From contig JAXIUW010206952.1 in the NCBI GenBank assembly GCA_035591015.1, forward strand, positions 1-64,000: a stretch of DNA of 64,000 nt, in the 5' to 3' direction. Shown one piece after another: positions 1 through 10,472 of this stretch (position 1 is the stretch's first letter; each line of letters starts with the position of its first letter). Both the position numbers and the translations under genes were made by a program. The notes under the pieces are model-generated. The model saw nothing but the letters and a program-made list of their open reading frames with translations. It was not told the DNA's origin and did not search any database. The DNA is from Cephalothrix simula (Eukaryota > Nemertea > Palaeonemertea > Archinemertea > Cephalotrichidae).

Positions 1-357
1 CGTGTGGCCGTGATGCAGTTTATTTAATTCGGGCGCATAAGCCCGTGAGGGCTTATCCAGCCCCAAAGAACACATCAGGGGGTGCAGGGGCTAAAGCCCC
101 TGCTGGGATTGTTAAGGGCAAAGCCCTTAACAAAATAACTTTGTAAAATAACCTTGCTTAGATTAACCGAGCAAGGCAATTCTCTATTGCCTTGCTGGGT
201 GAAACCCTTGACAAGATAAACCCAATAACAACTTTGCTTAACTTAACCGGGCAGGACAATTCTCTATTGTCCTGATCCCACAGGCCTGACCGAAGGCTCA
301 CGCCTTCGGCCAAAGGGTTATATGGGTCTAGATATTATCCAAAAGCGTTTTACTTTC
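1..357 (+). repeat. Hairpin-chain repeat module, copy 1
   Basis: This non-coding module of 357 bases starts again at 358 with the same bases. It is a chain of inverted repeats: 84-103 (9-bp arms, 2-base loop), 111-131 (9-bp arms, AAA loop), 170-196 (11-bp arms around TCTCT), 252-274 (9-bp arms around TCTCT) and 290-309 (8-bp arms, TCAC loop). A short GGGCT/AGCCC hairpin lies near 49-64. The window begins exactly at a module boundary, so more copies may lie to the left. An inverted copy lies at 9364-9640. No reading frame of protein-like composition is present. The function is unknown; an interspersed non-autonomous element or a structured RNA is possible. Confidence 0.85.
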
Positions 358-600
358 CGTGTGGCCGTGATGCAGTTTATTTAATTCGGGCGCATAAGCC
401 CGTGAGGGCTTATCCAGCCCCAAAGAACACATCACGGGGTGCAGGGGCTAAAGCCCCTGCTGGGATTGTTAAGGGTGAAACCCTTAACAAAATAACTTTG
501 CAATATAACCTTGCTTAGATTAACCGAGCAAGGCAATTCTCTATTGCCTTGCTGGGTGAAGCCCTTAACAAAATAAACCCCAATAATAACTTTGCTTCCT
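358..600 (+). repeat. Hairpin-chain repeat module, copy 2 (partial)
   Basis: Second copy in the same orientation, nearly identical to 1-240 and then losing similarity near 600. Hairpins lie at 441-460, 468-488 and 527-553. The 468-488 stem differs from its partner at 111-131: the innermost C-G pair has become T-A on both arms, so pairing is kept. It lacks the second TCTCT hairpin and the 290-309 hairpin of copy 1. Confidence 0.85.
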
Positions 601-1016
601 AAACTGAGCAACTTACGTATAGATTAGTTACAAATTTATCTGTAAATCAAATATAAATCAGAATATTAGGCATATAAAGTGTCAACTGTGGGTGCAACCA
701 TATTGGTTTTATCTCGTAGTAATAGTTAGGCCACATGCGTATATGAATAATGGGCTGTTTTTAAGATAAGGCACTCACTGACGCTGTTTCAATGGGGCAT
801 AATCGGCCTCTACGTGAGGCCTGCTTAATCTGTACGATGAGAGAGCGTACAGGCTAGCGACAGCATAGTAAATAGCGAACCGCTGTTCTACCAAAGTTTA
901 GAACAGTTACAAGGTCTTAACGGGCTCAGTATTAATAAATTTGGAAAGTTGGCAGAAACATTAAATCTGCTACTGCCAAAATTGAAGAGTAACGTTCTAA
1001 ATGGAGAAGTAGATAC
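601..1016. other. Non-coding stretch upstream of the RCC1-like lipoprotein gene
   Basis: No gene is seen. Two clean inverted repeats occur: GGCCTC/GAGGCC near 814-830, and CTGTACG/CGTACAG with a 9-base loop near 832-855. They do not match the hairpin module next door. A GGAG motif about 10 bases before 1017 can serve as the ribosome binding site of the downstream gene. No convincing promoter was identified. Confidence 0.5.
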
Positions 1017-2810
1017 ATGGACAACCATAAGAAGTTTAGATTTACTGCAATTATTGCAGGCTTGTCAGGGTGTATGATGCTCTCGGTATTACTATTTGGT
1101 TGTGGAGGAGCTGAAGATTCTTCCGACCTTGGTGGGTTTTTTACTGATACCCAAGTTGCATCATCTGAAACAACAAATGGAGTATATGGTGGCGGTGGTG
1201 CTCCGGGGGGAGGCAATTCTGGGGGAAGTTCCGGCGGTACTTCAGGCGATGGAAACGGTGGGTCAGGCGACACATCGGGTGGTACAGGCGGAGAAAACGA
1301 TGGCTCGAGCGGTACGTCAGGAGGAACATCAGGCGGAGGAAGCGATGGCTCTGGTGGTACATCGGGCGGTACAGGCGGAGAAAATAACGGCTCTGGTGAT
1401 ACTTCAGGTGGTGGAAGCGATGGGTCTGGCGGTACGTCAGGAGGAACATCAGGCGGTGGGAATGATGGGTCAGGCGGCACTTCTGATGGAAGTGGCTCAG
1501 ACGGCAATACTCAAGACAGCACTAAAACTTATCTACTGGCTATGGATGGCAATTCTTGCTACATCAAACCTGATAAAACATTATACTGCTGGGGCAACGG
1601 CTTCAATGGTCAGCTTGGTCAAGGAAGCACGCAGAGTTTTGGAAACACGGTCGACTCTATGGCAATGCTCAAGCCAGTTAGCTTTCCGACAGATCGCCAT
1701 CCGGTGCAGATTAGTGGCGAAGATGGCACTATTTGCGCAGTTTTAGATGATGGACAAGGTATGTGCTGGGGCAGTAGTTTTTTTGGTCGCTTAGGCAACG
1801 ATGCTTCAGAGAACATTGGCGATGAAGCCAATGAGATGGGTGATAATCTAGTTTCCGTTACAGCGATTAATGCCACACTTACCAACATTCACGTAGGTAA
1901 TAATTTCAGTTGTGGCTTAACGGTTGCCAAGCAGGTGATTTGTTGGGGTGGCAATTCTGATGGTCAGTTAGGGCAGGGTGATAAAGACAGGTACTATCCA
2001 CGAGGTACAGAGCGCACGGCAGCGATTGACTTTGGTACTGATGATAACGGCAAGTCCTTTACTGTGTCTCAACTAGCTCTAGCCGGTAATTCAGGTTGTG
2101 CACTTATTGAGCAAAATCGGCGTGTCAAATGCTGGGGAAGCAATAAACAGGGTGAGCTTGGTTTAGAAGATAGCAACGATCGTGGTGATAAAGCTGGTGA
2201 GATGGGAGACAATCTACCCTTTGTTGACTTGGGTCCAGATGACTCAGGTAATCTCTACGAAGTCCAAGCTATTCGGGGTGCTAGCCAACATTTTTGTGCA
2301 GTTTTAACCAATGATGCTGGCGTTAAATGCTGGGGGCAGAATAAACGTGGTCAATTAGGTATGGGCTTTCTACGTAGTGCTGGCAGATATACCAATACTA
2401 TGGGGGGGAATTTGCCCTTGGTAGAGCTTCCGAATGGTGTTCGGGTCAAAGACCTCCAAACCAGTAGCTATACTACATGCATACTTTCTACCGATTCTGA
2501 TGTTTATTGCTGGGGTGACCCCAGTTATGGGGCTCTTGGGCAGGATTATAGAGGTTATCTTGGCGATTATCCGGGTGAGATAGCCAGCTTAAATGCTATT
2601 GATTTGGGTAGCATAGATGGTCAGCCGTATAAGGCATCTAAGTTGTCAGTGGGTGATCAGCATGTTTGCGTAGAGCTAATCTCTGATCAAATAGCATTAA
2701 AGTGCTGGGGCAGAAATGACGAAGGTCAATTAGGTTTAGATAGCATCGTTAATCAGGGACAAAATGCGAATCAAATGGGTGATAATTTGCCACTAGTGTC
2801 ATTGCCTTAG
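1017..2810 (+). CDS. RCC1-repeat lipoprotein, predicted seven-bladed propeller
   Basis: Exported protein of 597 residues with an N-terminal hydrophobic segment and a lipobox-like LLFGC, so probably a lipoprotein. Residues of about 58-165 are a Gly/Ser/Thr-rich low-complexity linker. The rest is seven RCC1-type repeats, each with a CWG motif followed a few residues later by a G-x-LG motif (for example GQLG), and in all seven a second Cys lies 9-11 residues before CWG. Seven blades match the usual RCC1 propeller, and the regular Cys pairs suggest one disulfide per blade, which fits an extracytoplasmic location. The start is supported by GGAG about 10 bases upstream. RCC1-like proteins bind diverse partners; the ligand is unknown. 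The gene stands alone between repeat-rich DNA and a phosphatase gene. Confidence 0.85.
   Translation: MDNHKKFRFTAIIAGLSGCMMLSVLLFGCGGAEDSSDLGGFFTDTQVASSETTNGVYGGGGAPGGGNSGGSSGGTSGDGNGGSGDTSGGTGGENDGSSGTSGGTSGGGSDGSGGTSGGTGGENNGSGDTSGGGSDGSGGTSGGTSGGGNDGSGGTSDGSGSDGNTQDSTKTYLLAMDGNSCYIKPDKTLYCWGNGFNGQLGQGSTQSFGNTVDSMAMLKPVSFPTDRHPVQISGEDGTICAVLDDGQGMCWGSSFFGRLGNDASENIGDEANEMGDNLVSVTAINATLTNIHVGNNFSCGLTVAKQVICWGGNSDGQLGQGDKDRYYPRGTERTAAIDFGTDDNGKSFTVSQLALAGNSGCALIEQNRRVKCWGSNKQGELGLEDSNDRGDKAGEMGDNLPFVDLGPDDSGNLYEVQAIRGASQHFCAVLTNDAGVKCWGQNKRGQLGMGFLRSAGRYTNTMGGNLPLVELPNGVRVKDLQTSSYTTCILSTDSDVYCWGDPSYGALGQDYRGYLGDYPGEIASLNAIDLGSIDGQPYKASKLSVGDQHVCVELISDQIALKCWGRNDEGQLGLDSIVNQGQNANQMGDNLPLVSLP
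1188..1512 (+). repeat. Imperfect coding repeats, Gly/Ser-rich linker
   Basis: This GGT/GGC/TCA-rich stretch encodes the linker of the RCC1-like lipoprotein. Imperfect units of about 9-25 codons recur, such as GGTSGG, GSDGSGG and GTGGEN. Such runs expand and contract by slippage, so linker length may vary among strains. The antisense strand has a long Pro-rich open frame that is only a by-product of this composition. Confidence 0.75.
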
Positions 2811-3710: not shown

Positions 3711-5528
3711 TTAAGTCGCGCTAGGTGCTATTTGCATGTTGTAGAGTTTATTGTAAGCACCGCTATGGGCTATTAATTCTTGATGCGAGCCATGCTCGAG
3801 AACTCGCCCCTTGTCAATTACATAAATGCAGTCAGCATCATGGATTGTTGATAAGCGGTGAGCAATAGCGATGGTAGTCCGATTTTTCATCAGGTTTTTT
3901 AAGGCGGTCTGAATATCTTTTTCTGTTTCTGTGTCTAGTGCCGATGTCGCTTCATCAAGAATGAGTATGGGGGCGTTCTTGAGCAAAGCCCTAGCGATAA
4001 CTAGGCGTTGCCTTTGCCCTCCAGATATTTTAATGCCGCCTTCACCGATAATGGTGTCATAACCTTTTGAAAGACTCATAATGAAGTCATGAGCATAAGC
4101 TGCCTTAGCGGCTACTATTAGCTCATCATCGCTACAGTCAGAGTTTCCATAGGTTATGTTATTCCTGACGGTATTATGGAACAGAAAAATATCTTGGGAA
4201 ACAAGAGAAATATTACGCCGCAAAGACTGGCGGGTTAGCGTGCGAATGTCTATTCCATCAAGCTGGATACTGCCATGTTCTAGCTCATAGAAGCGTGGCA
4301 AAAGGTTGGCCAAGGTGGTTTTTCCGCCACCACTCTCACCGACCAGGGCTACTATACTGCCCTTGGGGATGTGGATGTCTATATTCTGCAAGACTTTTTT
4401 ATGCTGACTAGCATCACCATTATCGCCACTGCTCCACGAATAGGTAAAGTGATTGATTTTGATATCAATACCCTCTTTGAGGGGAGGTGCAAAGGTTTTG
4501 GCATTTGGAATATCAGGAGTTTCTGTTTCAAGTTTCAATATGCTCTGAATGCGCTCACCTGCAGCGAGGCCTTCACTAAGAGAATAGTTAATACTATTAA
4601 GAGCTCTAAGAGGCTTACTAATCATGGTGAAAGCTAGCAGAAATGAGGCTAATTCTGCTCCGGTCATGCTGTTGCTCGTTATCATAAATCCGCCGGCCAT
4701 GATTACTATAGAGAATACCGTAGCTATGGTAAGCTCTATAAAAGAACCGGAAAGTGCAGATATATCAGCACTTTTCATGATAAATTTAATCAGTTTTCCG
4801 TAATGGCGTTCAAATAGGTTTTTTTCATTTTCTTGTGTACAGAAGGCTTTAATAACTTTGGCGCCACGGACAGACTCATCTACTCCGGAATACACCTCAC
4901 CGAGCACTTGCAGTCGTTGTTTGGAGATTTTGGTATTCAGGCGACCAAAATACCTTATAAGCATAAAAACAATTGGTGCTGCAATCATGACAATGCATGA
5001 CATAGCCCAACTACGATAAAACATAATGCCTAATAAGAAGAACAACTGCGGAATATCACGTAGTGGGCCATTAAATATGGCGGAAATAGTGCTTTGGATA
5101 TGCTGCGTATCGGCAATAAAACGAGACATTATCTCGCCGCCCTTACTGCGATCATAGTACTCCATACCCATCTTTTGTAAATGATAATAGAAGTTCCTCC
5201 GCAATTTATAAACAACATTAGTTTCTAAACGCACGACAGAATGGTGTTGGATGAAGTTTATTAAACTCTTTATTAAGTAGAATAGAACAATCACTACCCC
5301 GGCCACAAAAAAAGTAGACATGGGCGGTATTTCTTCGCTATTTAGGGCATCAATAGCATCTTTGATATACCAAGCCGGCAGTACGGCTAATAAGCTACTT
5401 AAGAGTATTGCAGCGATTGCAATCAATACTCTAATTTTATGCTCAATGAGGTATCTAAGCACAAAATCAACAGTTTTTTTTGCGCTTTCTTCTTTGAAAC
5501 TAAATATTTTTTTAAGCACGAACGGCAT
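3711..5528 (-). CDS. msbA: ABC exporter, MsbA-like (fused permease and ATPase)
   Basis: A 605-residue half-transporter. The N-terminal half has about six membrane segments (ABC exporter type I). The C-terminal half is the ATPase, with Walker A GESGGGKTT, signature ISGGQRQR, Walker B ILILDEATSALD and the H-loop IAHRLST. Length and order match MsbA, which flips lipid A-core across the inner membrane as a homodimer, but other exporters of this class look alike. No lpxK or kdsB neighbour supports the MsbA assignment, so the symbol is tentative. The start codon ATG at 5528 has only a weak ribosome binding site. Confidence 0.8.
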   Translation of the reverse strand: MPFVLKKIFSFKEESAKKTVDFVLRYLIEHKIRVLIAIAAILLSSLLAVLPAWYIKDAIDALNSEEIPPMSTFFVAGVVIVLFYLIKSLINFIQHHSVVRLETNVVYKLRRNFYYHLQKMGMEYYDRSKGGEIMSRFIADTQHIQSTISAIFNGPLRDIPQLFFLLGIMFYRSWAMSCIVMIAAPIVFMLIRYFGRLNTKISKQRLQVLGEVYSGVDESVRGAKVIKAFCTQENEKNLFERHYGKLIKFIMKSADISALSGSFIELTIATVFSIVIMAGGFMITSNSMTGAELASFLLAFTMISKPLRALNSINYSLSEGLAAGERIQSILKLETETPDIPNAKTFAPPLKEGIDIKINHFTYSWSSGDNGDASQHKKVLQNIDIHIPKGSIVALVGESGGGKTTLANLLPRFYELEHGSIQLDGIDIRTLTRQSLRRNISLVSQDIFLFHNTVRNNITYGNSDCSDDELIVAAKAAYAHDFIMSLSKGYDTIIGEGGIKISGGQRQRLVIARALLKNAPILILDEATSALDTETEKDIQTALKNLMKNRTTIAIAHRLSTIHDADCIYVIDKGRVLEHGSHQELIAHSGAYNKLYNMQIAPSAT

Positions 5529-8434: not shown

Positions 8435-9010
8435 ATGGAATATTTATCTAGAATTAAAGAGAAATCTATACTGCTTGAGGTATTGTCGCAAGATTTACGA
8501 TATATAGCTTATGCCGGTGGAGCATCGGGATGGTACAAGATGCAGGGCATGCCTGCAACTGAATTGCCCAATAACTACCGATTTTTTGCTGCCATTGATG
8601 AAAAGGCCTTTGCCAGAATAATCGGCCTGAATCAAAAAATGAACAGAAGAGAGCGGCGAAGATTCCCTCGCTTCTCAATTTCTCGTGTTGTAGAAACTAA
8701 CTTGGGTTGGGGGGGTGAAGATTTTGACAACCTCGGAGTAACAATTGAAAGTGCGTCACTCAATGGCATGAAGATCGTCTTCAAGTATGATGAAAACCAA
8801 GAAATAGCTCTATCTAAGGGCGACATGGTCAACATCACCATTGTTGAACCGTCTCGGCGTGCTATTAAACGTGATTTTGAAGCTCGCATAGCTTATGTGA
8901 TGCGAGACAACAATGAACCATTAGATGTGCATATGGGCTTGGTCTTCTCATCCTCAGTTTCTGGCGGCAAACGCAAAGATATCTTAGCTTTCTTGACGAG
9001 TCCTTATTAG
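8435..9010 (+). CDS. PilZ-like domain protein
   Basis: A 191-residue protein with about 65 N-terminal residues of unknown nature, followed by a PilZ-like domain. The first c-di-GMP motif is present as RRERRRFPR (residues 70-78). The second, D/N-x-S-x-x-G, appears as SASLNG, with Ser in the first position. The domain ends in the usual MGLVFSS strand. If it binds c-di-GMP it would be an effector of motility or surface behaviour, which fits a flagellated cell, but the changed second motif leaves binding uncertain. No Shine-Dalgarno sequence precedes the ATG. Confidence 0.7.
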   Translation: MEYLSRIKEKSILLEVLSQDLRYIAYAGGASGWYKMQGMPATELPNNYRFFAAIDEKAFARIIGLNQKMNRRERRRFPRFSISRVVETNLGWGGEDFDNLGVTIESASLNGMKIVFKYDENQEIALSKGDMVNITIVEPSRRAIKRDFEARIAYVMRDNNEPLDVHMGLVFSSSVSGGKRKDILAFLTSPY

Positions 9011-9203
9011 CCAAGCGCAGAGCGAGTACTGTAAGCCCAACGTTTACCTCTTATTACGATTGCCCTGATGGTTTCAAGGTGCGTGGTCTGTTTGTACTTT
9101 TGTTAAAGACTTGCCGAATAATAGTAAAAAGAAGGGGCTGCCTCAGCACACCGTTTGTGTTACGAATTGCTAAGGCCAGAGCCTTCTGCATCCTGAGTTC
9201 GTA
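9011..9203. other. Non-coding spacer leading into the hairpin repeats
   Basis: No gene is seen. The end of this stretch, including the small inverted repeat AAGGC/GCCTT near 9171-9185 and the CTGCATCCTGAG following it, looks like a decayed version of the module segment found intact at 9400-9431. Confidence 0.4.
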
Positions 9204-9363
9204 GTTATTTTGTTAAAGGTTTTGCCCAGCAAGATGATAGAGAATCATCTTGCTCGGTTTCGGAAGCAAAGTTACCTTACAAAGTTATTTTGTTAAGGGC
9301 TTTGCCCAGCAAGATGATAGAGAATCATCTTGCTCGGTTTCGGAAGCAAAGTTACCTTACAAA
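9204..9363 (-). repeat. Two tandem 80-bp hairpin units
   Basis: Two head-to-tail copies of an 80-base unit (9204-9283 and 9284-9363) are identical apart from one or two bases; a third starts at 9364. Each has an 11-bp-arm hairpin with the loop AGAGA (9228-9254 and 9308-9334). The arms differ from those of the corresponding hairpins at 170-196 and 527-553, but pairing is complete. The near identity implies a recent duplication or gene conversion. Confidence 0.85.
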
Positions 9364-9640
9364 GTTATTTTGTTAAGGGCTTTGCCCTTAACGATCCCAG
9401 CAGAGAGCCAGCTCTCTGCACTCTCAGGATAGTTCTTTGGGGCTGGATAAGCCCTTCACGGGCTTATGCGCCCGAATTAAATAAACTGCATCACGGCCAC
9501 ACCGAAAATAAAACGCTTTTAGATAATATCTAGACTCCTATAACCCTTTGGCCGAAGCCTTCAGCCAAGTCTGTGGTAACAGGACAATAGTGAATTGCCT
9601 TGCTCGGTTTCGGAAGCAAAGTTGAGTTTGGAATTTAGTT
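9364..9640 (-). repeat. Hairpin-chain repeat module, inverted copy
   Basis: Read on the minus strand, this region follows the left-end module through its junction, matching roughly 230-357 and then 358-488. Hairpins are at 9372-9392 (9-bp arms, TTT loop) and 9400-9419 (9-bp arms, CA loop). A mismatched one lies near 9579-9602. The 9400-9419 stem differs from the left-end stem (84-103) at several paired positions on both arms. It is about 9 kb from the left-end copies and opposite to them, so the two could recombine to invert the intervening segment. Confidence 0.85.
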
Positions 9641-9803
9641 AAGGATTTTTATGACTTTACGGGGTTGTTAGGGGCAAGCCCTTAACACTAAGCAGTGGCC
9701 TTGTAGCTGTCAGATGCTCTAACACGCCTTTGCCTGATAGCCTGCAATGCGAATGAGCTTTATTTATAGGTATGTAGCCTTAGACTTGATTTCTCTATTG
9801 CGC
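9641..9803. other. Non-coding spacer before the RNase D-like gene end
   Basis: No gene is seen. A weakened GTTAGGGGC/GCCCTTAAC inverted repeat near 9666-9685 looks like another remnant of the module family. Confidence 0.4.
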
Positions 9804-10472
9804 TTAATGGCCAAAAATACTGGTTTCCCAGCCACGATCACGGTCGCCGTAGCCATTAGAGATAAGCTCAACAATTGTAACTAGTGCCACCTGAGCATTT
9901 TCATTAAGTTTTGAAAAACTGATACCCGTGGGTAAGTTGCCACGCTGATTAAGGTTTTCTTTGAGTTTTTTATAAGCCTCAATTAGGTATAAAACATCAT
10001 TAGCGGCATAGCGCAGCTGCTCAGGGCTAAGGTTTTCAGCACTCCAGTTAGAGGTTTGCTGATCTTTAGGCAGGTCAATTCCACACAGTTCACGCAGTAA
10101 CTCAACCAATGAATGGCGCTCGGTATAGGTACGCACAATCTTACTCATTATTTTGGTGCAGTGATAGTTATTAACCTGTATTCCAAGGCCTTTCTGCAAC
10201 ATAACCACATCGGCCAGTGCATAATGAAACACCTTAATCACTTTTTCATCAGCTAATAGTTTTTTTAGATTAGGCGGGCACTCTGCAGAGGTTGGCTTGA
10301 TTAGGGATACATTTTGGTCTTCATCGGCAATCTGAATTAAACAAACACCATCACGCCATATGTTCAGACCCTCTAGCTCTGTATCTACAGCAACAATGCC
10401 CTTATTGGTAAAGGTCTTCAATAAATCACTGGGAATATCTTTGTCTACTTTGTAAGTTACTTCGTTATTCAT
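9804..10472 (-). CDS. RNase D-like 3'-5' exonuclease (short form)
   Basis: A 222-residue DEDDy exonuclease. Exo I is D30/E32 (VDTELEG), Exo II includes D88 (FHYALADV), and Exo III has Y155 and D159 (YAANDV). All metal ligands are present. E. coli RNase D is about 375 residues because of two HRDC domains; this protein is the exonuclease domain only, a form common in several proteobacterial lineages. It probably trims RNA 3' ends. It lies 8 bases downstream of greA and likely shares its transcript. Confidence 0.85.
   Translation of the reverse strand: MNNEVTYKVDKDIPSDLLKTFTNKGIVAVDTELEGLNIWRDGVCLIQIADEDQNVSLIKPTSAECPPNLKKLLADEKVIKVFHYALADVVMLQKGLGIQVNNYHCTKIMSKIVRTYTERHSLVELLRELCGIDLPKDQQTSNWSAENLSPEQLRYAANDVLYLIEAYKKLKENLNQRGNLPTGISFSKLNENAQVALVTIVELISNGYGDRDRGWETSIFGH

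What the first reader, a model, noticed from the sequence alone, without database searches (positions are those of the whole stretch)
1..600. Hairpin-chain repeat with paired (compensatory) stem changes
Seen directly. The hairpins around the constant loop TCTCT have three different stems: AGCAAGGCAAT (170-196, 527-553), CAGGACAAT (252-274) and, in the inverted copy, AGCAAGATGAT (9228-9254, 9308-9334). Each is matched by its own reverse complement. Similarly GTTAAGGGC/GCCCTTAAC became GTTAAGGGT/ACCCTTAAC at 468-488, and the 84-103 stem differs from the 9400-9419 stem at several paired positions. Changes on both arms with fixed loops and flanks are what one expects if base pairing is selected. 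It could be a structured RNA, a protein-bound palindromic element or a non-autonomous mobile element. I do not recognise it as a described family.
Basis: partly seen in the sequence, partly recalled or inferred. Interest (0 to 1): 0.75.

Follow-up and report, generated by a model that had tools for sequence, protein, structure and literature searches.

The report
Modular hairpin-chain repeats between bacterial genes
A poorly known bacterium carries many copies of a modular, non-coding DNA element between its genes, made of chains of hairpins whose paired letters change together; a strand bias in the imperfect pairs hints that one strand works as folded RNA, but this is not yet shown.

Summary
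Window 1-611 and 9203-9664 are two islands of a repeat family in one bacterium; the D-hairpin frame occurs 113 times in the assembly, 0 for the reversed control. Islands follow a grammar: hairpin A (two types), B, C, then D units of about 82 nt; arms meet divergently 20 times, convergently 6. Stems covary beyond shuffles and beyond a tree-based null (0 of 400). Covariation alone does not prove RNA selection: stem alleles move as blocks, and template switching can mimic it. More telling, imperfect pairs on the outward strand are mostly G-U, not A-C (42:9 per island; 10:2 in later loci); A loops are often GNRA and spacers G-poor. Against: one count per pair class gives 16:8 (p=0.15), most parts do not fold better outward, and no promoter or terminator was found in the two islands scanned. 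Tagged-REP/RAYT membership was tested and not met. Best reading: a new modular intergenic repeat family whose outward strand probably acts as RNA; transcription is not shown.

The parts
1..611 (+). Island 1: A-B-C-D-D, partial type-2 A and centre, then A-B-C-D; reaches the contig start
9203..9664 (-). Island 2: D-D-C-B-A read on the - strand, plus a degenerate D and a type-2 A remnant, between a PilZ-domain gene (8435-9010, +) and an RNase D-like gene (9804-10472, -) that point at each other
37..56 (+). Hairpin A type 1, first copy (ATAAGCCC-GTGA-GGGCTTAT; GNRA loop)
394..413 (+). Hairpin A type 1, second copy
9447..9467 (-). Hairpin A type 1 of island 2 (loop GTGAA)
84..103 (+). Hairpin B, allele GCAGGGGC-TAAA-GCCCCTGC, first copy
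441..460 (+). Hairpin B, same allele, second copy
9400..9419 (-). Hairpin B, allele GCAGAGAG-CTGG-CTCTCTGC
111..131 (+). Hairpin C, GTTAAGGGC-AAA-GCCCTTAAC
468..488 (+). Hairpin C, GTTAAGGGT-GAA-ACCCTTAAC
9372..9392 (-). Hairpin C of island 2, GTTAAGGGC-AAA-GCCCTTAAC
171..195 (+). Hairpin D, allele GCAAGGCAAT, loop TCTCT
251..275 (+). Hairpin D, allele GCAGGACAAT, outermost pair lost
528..552 (+). Hairpin D, allele GCAAGGCAAT
9229..9253 (-). Hairpin D, allele GCAAGATGAT
9309..9333 (-). Hairpin D, allele GCAAGATGAT
9579..9603 (-). Degenerate D hairpin with mixed arms (GCAAGGCAAT / ATTGTCCTGT): two G-U and one A-C
197..207 (+). Small hairpin E after D (GGGT-GAA-ACCC)
554..564 (+). Small hairpin E after D (GGGT-GAA-GCCC)
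290..309 (-). Hairpin A type 2 (CCGAAGGC / GCCTTCGG), outward reading on -
310..375 (.). Centre segment between a type-2 and a type-1 A hairpin

Best explanation
This is a family of non-coding, interspersed, modular repeats of a deep-branching bacterium. A complete copy is a mirror pair of arms (D-D-C-B-A, centre, A'-B-C-D-D) set between genes, more often at their 3' ends. Shown: the grammar, the copy number, the paired stem changes, and hairpins with conserved loop but variable stem in slot D. Inferred: the strand that reads outward from the centre folds as a chain-of-hairpins RNA and is selected to stay paired, so that G-U pairs are tolerated and A-C pairs removed; stems are renewed by exchange of whole hairpins between copies and by template switching; copies spread by duplication and recombination, or by a transposase not identified here. 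What the RNA does (for example buffering convergent gene ends, or only serving the spread of the element) is not shown.
For: Grammar: 148 of 166 neighbouring steps are A-B, B-C, C-D or D-D, 6 skip a slot, 12 are D-to-A restarts, none runs backwards; arms meet divergently 20 times, convergently 6 (A-B-C order is partly built into how B was searched). Copy number. Covariation: 88 D units, 125 doubly changed cells against 45.9 in shuffles; 19 type-1 arms, 50 against 16.7; tree-based null 0 of 400 for both. Strand asymmetry: G-U:A-C 42:9 per island, slot and position after dropping positions where my search patterns were lopsided; 22 islands with more G-U, 2 with more A-C; both arm types in the first, lopsided count (29:6 and 13:1 raw; 12:6 and 11:1 unique); later-fetched loci 10:2, p=0.039. 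A loops with flank-fixed orientation: GNRA 28 of 52, its reverse complement 0 of 52. Outward spacers before D: G 13.5%, C 25.9%, against G 23.2%, C 20.7% in the window, opposite to what C-to-T plus A-to-G mutation on that strand would leave. Window 358-600 folds at -96.7 kcal/mol, z -6.4.
Against: Each pair class counted once gives only 16:8 (p=0.15) or, in a second scan, 22:10 (p=0.05; there some type-1 A hairpins appear to be counted on both strands). The unbiased D list alone is 13:5, p=0.096. Predicted energy does not favour the outward strand for type-1 arms (more stable in 9 of 29) or D units (37 of 88); it does for type-2 arms (21 of 21). Two covariation measures do not exceed shuffles: number of doubly changed D pairs (100 of 500 as high) and further pair types in the arms (500 of 500). 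No sigma-70-like promoter and no intrinsic terminator in the two islands scanned. No RNA data and no related genome.
Confidence: 0.5

Rival explanations
1. Pure DNA palindromes: arms are kept complementary by replication template switching and by recombination between copies, with no selection on RNA. Paired changes are then a by-product.
For: Two common D alleles differ by a block of three adjacent pairs; the same allele occurs with different flanks; a tree from unpaired columns needs 20-25 changes on each side of those three pairs where a tree from all columns needs 3-7; loops AAT and ATT both occur on the same B stems, as loop inversion would give; 82 of 100 listed D frames are perfect. Mechanism described in PMC8794818 (abstract and passages seen).
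Against: It predicts equal G-T and A-C mismatches on a given strand; observed 42:9 per island, though only 16:8 when each class is counted once. It allows loop inversion; with flank-fixed orientation 0 of 75 D loops are inverted and 1 of 63 C loops reads TTT.
Confidence: 0.25
2. REP/BIME- or BOX-like selfish repeats moved by a transposase acting in trans; the hairpins are transposase recognition sites.
For: Intergenic, often at gene 3' ends, hairpin-rich, modular with a repeatable unit, as described for REPs (PMC3733652, abstract) and BOX (PMC3049150, abstract and section 5).
Against: No Y1/RAYT domain match in the whole assembly, while the search rings in 5 of 14 control genomes; other transposase families were not searched. 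The sequence beyond the last D differs between the 50-odd outer ends printed, so no constant terminus could be defined. One-strand ssDNA transfer would not give a bias that points outward in both arms.
Confidence: 0.15
3. Bidirectional transcription terminators or mRNA 3'-end protectors for convergent genes.
For: 40 of 60 flanking gene ends are 3' ends (half expected; p=0.013), median gap 40 nt, against 168 nt for 5' ends.
Against: No terminator-like site in window 9000-9820 or L042 1000-1900; other islands were not scanned. A convergent mRNA reads its near arm inward, the strand on which the mismatches are A-C rather than G-U.
Confidence: 0.1

Closest known systems
BOX elements of Streptococcus pneumoniae (boxA-boxB(n)-boxC; PMC3049150, abstract and section 5 read)
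   Same: Interspersed repeat, modular, with a repeatable unit, predicted to fold as RNA; some copies shown to be expressed
   Different: Here four hairpin slots, the repeated unit at the outer end, mirror-image arms around a centre, no constant terminus seen; sequence relation to BOX not tested
REP / BIME palindromes with GTAG or CGTC tags (PMC3733652, abstract read)
   Same: Palindromic, many copies, units in opposite orientation, mostly downstream of genes or between convergent ones
   Different: Ordered arms of hundreds of bases instead of one 20-40 bp palindrome; no GTAG/CGTC at the base of the B, C or D stems in the alignments made; no RAYT match in the assembly
Intergenic stem-loop repeat families of bacteria (PMC1590033, abstract read)
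   Same: Stem-loops concentrated at gene 3' ends, some in repeat families
   Different: A multi-hairpin grammar and strand-specific G-U tolerance are not mentioned in the abstract read

Membership tests
REP with RAYT | GTAG or CGTC tag at the base of the palindrome | tested here: not met
   In the alignments of D units and type-1 arms no GTAG or CGTC stands next to the B, C or D stems; type-2 A not aligned for this
REP with RAYT | Y1 (RAYT) transposase in the genome | tested here: not met
   PF01797 0 matches in G000; control rings in 5 of 14 genomes
REP with RAYT | 20-40 bp palindrome located downstream of genes | tested here: inconclusive
   Single hairpins have that size and the location fits, but they occur as ordered arms of hundreds of bases
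BOX | Sequence homology to boxA/B/C | not tested
   No BOX sequence was fetched; only the literature was read
BOX / MITE | Terminal inverted repeats and target-site duplication | tested here: inconclusive
   Outer ends differ from copy to copy; no empty sites available
Intrinsic terminator | G+C stem followed by a T run | tested here: not met
   0 in window 9000-9820 and 0 in L042 1000-1900; other islands not scanned
Any Rfam family | Match above the gathering score | tested here: not met
   Only a tRNA in the window; sub-threshold matches at 1-800 are far below their cut-offs
Retroelement-borne structured RNA | Reverse transcriptase in the same bacterium | tested here: inconclusive
   24 RVT_1 places in G000, none on the 21 contigs known to carry the element; further contigs of the bacterium may exist

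The most novel reading that the evidence does not exclude
Each island makes two divergent, structured non-coding RNAs from a shared centre, built from interchangeable hairpin cassettes in a fixed order (A-B-C-Dn) with conserved loops (GNRA; UCUCU): a dispersed, cassette-built class of bacterial RNA, with loops as the functional sites and stems as freely exchangeable scaffolds.
Probability: 0.25. Interest if true: 0.75.

Novelty: new variant of a known kind. Interest (0 to 1): 0.5.

Why it matters
It offers a natural set of more than 100 copies of one hairpin in one genome with many stem alleles, so that two explanations of compensatory change (RNA selection and DNA template switching) can be told apart by the strand of the mismatches. 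If outward RNAs exist, it adds a cassette-built family of RNA repeats in a lineage without close relatives in the collections searched here.

Tried and rejected
An exact scan of 84,980 species genomes for TTAYCCAGCCCCAAAGAAC gave two matches (Saprospiraceae, Pseudomonas); the printed surroundings show no further part of the element by eye, so I take them as chance (the nhmmer part failed on a format error and was not repeated). The same pattern and one D hairpin gave 0 in viral contigs. Distant blastn of window 1-611 gave no match in plasmids or phages. One text search for four short strings of the element found no paper; topic searches (listings seen) showed no such family. These searches are narrow and do not show that nothing is in print. 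The PilZ-domain neighbour had no homologue at E<=0.001 among 58 candidates, so relatives could not be used. Flanking genes share no family: the commonest Pfam families match 3 of 53 proteins given (the three window neighbours were not in that set; 25 of 77 families are shown). Predicted energy by strand did not separate the strands overall. TATAAT-like sequence upstream of many type-2 A hairpins was seen but is inherited by descent, and the scan of one such island found no promoter, so it is not counted as evidence. The first count of G-U against A-C (37:13) used search patterns that were lopsided at some positions; replace it. Searches were run on hand-picked subsets (16 of 19 arms, 66 of 88 D units, several imperfect units left out); on re-reading I repeated them with all 19 and 88, and the report uses those. 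Even so the 88 were found by rules that ask for at least six Watson-Crick pairs, so the percentage paired is too high for the family as a whole.

Full report
What is there. The window starts inside a repeat island (1-611) and has a second one at 9203-9664 on the other strand. The assembly in which the window lies (G000, 8.6 Mb, 580 contigs) holds at least 74 places similar to window 358-611, 61 similar to one 84-nt D unit, 53 similar to a type-2 arm with its centre, and 113 D-hairpin frames against 0 for the reversed control pattern. Contigs with the element in these calls: 21, about 1.46 Mb by their listed lengths. At 28 of their 42 ends a match lies within about 300 nt of the contig end, so I infer that the element breaks the assembly and the true number is larger.

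Grammar. Hairpins follow one order outward from a centre: A (type 1, TAAGCCC-GTGA-GGGCTTA, or type 2, TTGGCCGAAGGC-GTGA-GCCTTCGGCCAA), B, C (GTTAAGGGC-AAA-GCCCTTAAC), then one to four D units of 80-84 nt (10-bp stem, loop TCTCT, followed by a small GGGC-AAA-GCCC hairpin). Of 166 neighbouring steps on one strand, 148 are A-B, B-C, C-D or D-D, 6 skip a slot, 12 are D-to-A restarts where arms are joined, and none runs backwards. B was searched by its A-side and C-side flanks, so the A-B-C order is partly built into that count; C-D and D-D are not. Arms meet divergently 20 times and convergently 6 times. The fullest islands read D-D-C-B-A / centre / A'-B-C-D-D; of 40 islands listed (two of the 42 were dropped for low depth) many are partial or joined. 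Where a type-2 A has a divergent type-1 A nearby (14 of 21), the distance is 140-152 nt in 9 and 319-487 nt in 5. Arrays of D often hold one stem allele, and whole segments can be tandem copies (window 1-223 and 358-580, 96%).

Context. Of 60 flanking gene ends within 600 nt, 40 are 3' ends (median gap 40 nt) and 20 are 5' ends (median 168 nt); half would be expected, p=0.013. Genes here are open reading frames of at least 100 aa chosen by length and only partly checked by Pfam. Neighbours include HisG, an FtsJ-like methyltransferase and aldehyde dehydrogenase; 53 flanking proteins show no common family.

Host. One bacterial 16S gene was found in G000, on the contig of the window. The best rows against plasmid-borne 16S genes are full-length at 79.7% or less; ten records with higher identity must be partial by the ranking. 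The MsbA-like neighbour is at best 44% identical to the 120 proteins listed from a search of 5.8 billion. Ribosomal protein uL14 is 73-80% identical to the 120 listed; of the 13 that name an organism, 6 are SAR324. A second, weak uL14 match (45 bits) and reverse-transcriptase frames of 1349-1576 aa lie on other contigs. I infer that G000 is a eukaryote assembly with one deep-branching bacterium, perhaps near SAR324.

Covariation. In all 88 D units available at that time (87 distinct) 98.3% of cells pair and 125 cells are changed on both sides, against 45.9 in shuffles (0 of 500). In all 19 type-1 arms the figures are 98.6% and 50 against 16.7 (0 of 500). Slid structures pair 27.7-46.7% (D) and 29.9-56.2% (arms). 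The hairpins had been collected with a minimum of Watson-Crick pairs, so the percentages are upper values. Two measures do not exceed shuffles: the number of doubly changed D pairs (100 of 500 as high) and further pair types in the arms (500 of 500). Because shuffles ignore relatedness, I wrote a null in the manner of R-scape: substitutions inferred by parsimony are placed at random on a FastTree tree. The summed covariation (386.6 for D, 201.9 for arms) was not reached in 400 simulations, whether the tree came from all columns or from unpaired columns. The tree of unpaired columns needs 20-25 changes on each side of three linked D pairs where the all-column tree needs 3-7, so the stem moves as a block relative to its flanks. 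Such blocks, or template switching, can create covariation without RNA selection.

Strand asymmetry. Arm-to-arm DNA copying treats both strands alike, so G-T and A-C mismatches should be equally common on a given strand. On the outward strand, per island, slot and position, after dropping positions where my patterns could not see both kinds and hairpins with more than two mismatches, G-U:A-C is 42:9; without the one position where G-U is shared by half of the type-1 A hairpins it is 31:9 (p=7e-4). The orientation of C was set by its purine-rich loop; with flanks instead, 61 of 63 C loops are of that kind, one reads TTT and one GGT. In the first, lopsided count the excess is seen in type-1 and type-2 arms. 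In loci fetched later it is 10:2 (p=0.039, with slot templates rewritten after the first result). Against: counting each pair class once gives 16:8 (p=0.15), and the unbiased D list alone 13:5 (p=0.096; 18 imperfect of 100 listed). Mutation bias on the outward strand would have to be C-to-T and A-to-G, but unpaired outward spacers are G-poor and C-rich. Replication direction cannot explain a bias that points outward in both arms. GNRA loops on A hairpins (28 of 52, reverse complement 0 of 52) fit an RNA, although PMC8794818 notes that GNRA loops are stable in DNA too (passage seen).

Mechanism. The most likely account is that the outward strand of each arm is, or was, transcribed and folds into a hairpin chain; loops are conserved (TCTCT in 72 of 75 flank-fixed D hairpins) while stems are exchanged as cassettes. 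No sigma-70-like promoter or intrinsic terminator was found in the two islands scanned, and energy predictions prefer the outward strand only in type-2 arms, so transcription remains an inference.

Comparison. The family resembles BOX elements in being modular and REPs in location. It is not a REP of the tagged kind: no tag at the stems aligned and no RAYT match. BOX membership was not tested by sequence. No Rfam family matches at the gathering score. I rate it a new variant of a known kind (modular intergenic hairpin repeats).

Noticed in passing
contig ends of C1, C2, C19, C29, C97, C302, C549, C563 and others: 28 of 42 ends of the 21 element-bearing contigs have a match to the element within about 300 nt, so the repeat seems to limit the assembly.
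   Followed up: partly
window 1017-2810 (+): A 597-aa protein with RCC1-type repeats behind a long glycine-, serine- and threonine-rich linker, downstream of island 1.
   Followed up: partly
flanking genes of the islands (protein alignment A3): Two Pfam families among the flanking proteins are phage ones (Mu-like gpT head subunit, tail tube), so at least one island may lie beside a prophage.
   Followed up: no
extended centres in C19, C98 and C302 (for example C98 near 4026-4348): Three islands share a further conserved insert of roughly 180 nt in the centre, not seen in the nine short centres.
   Followed up: no
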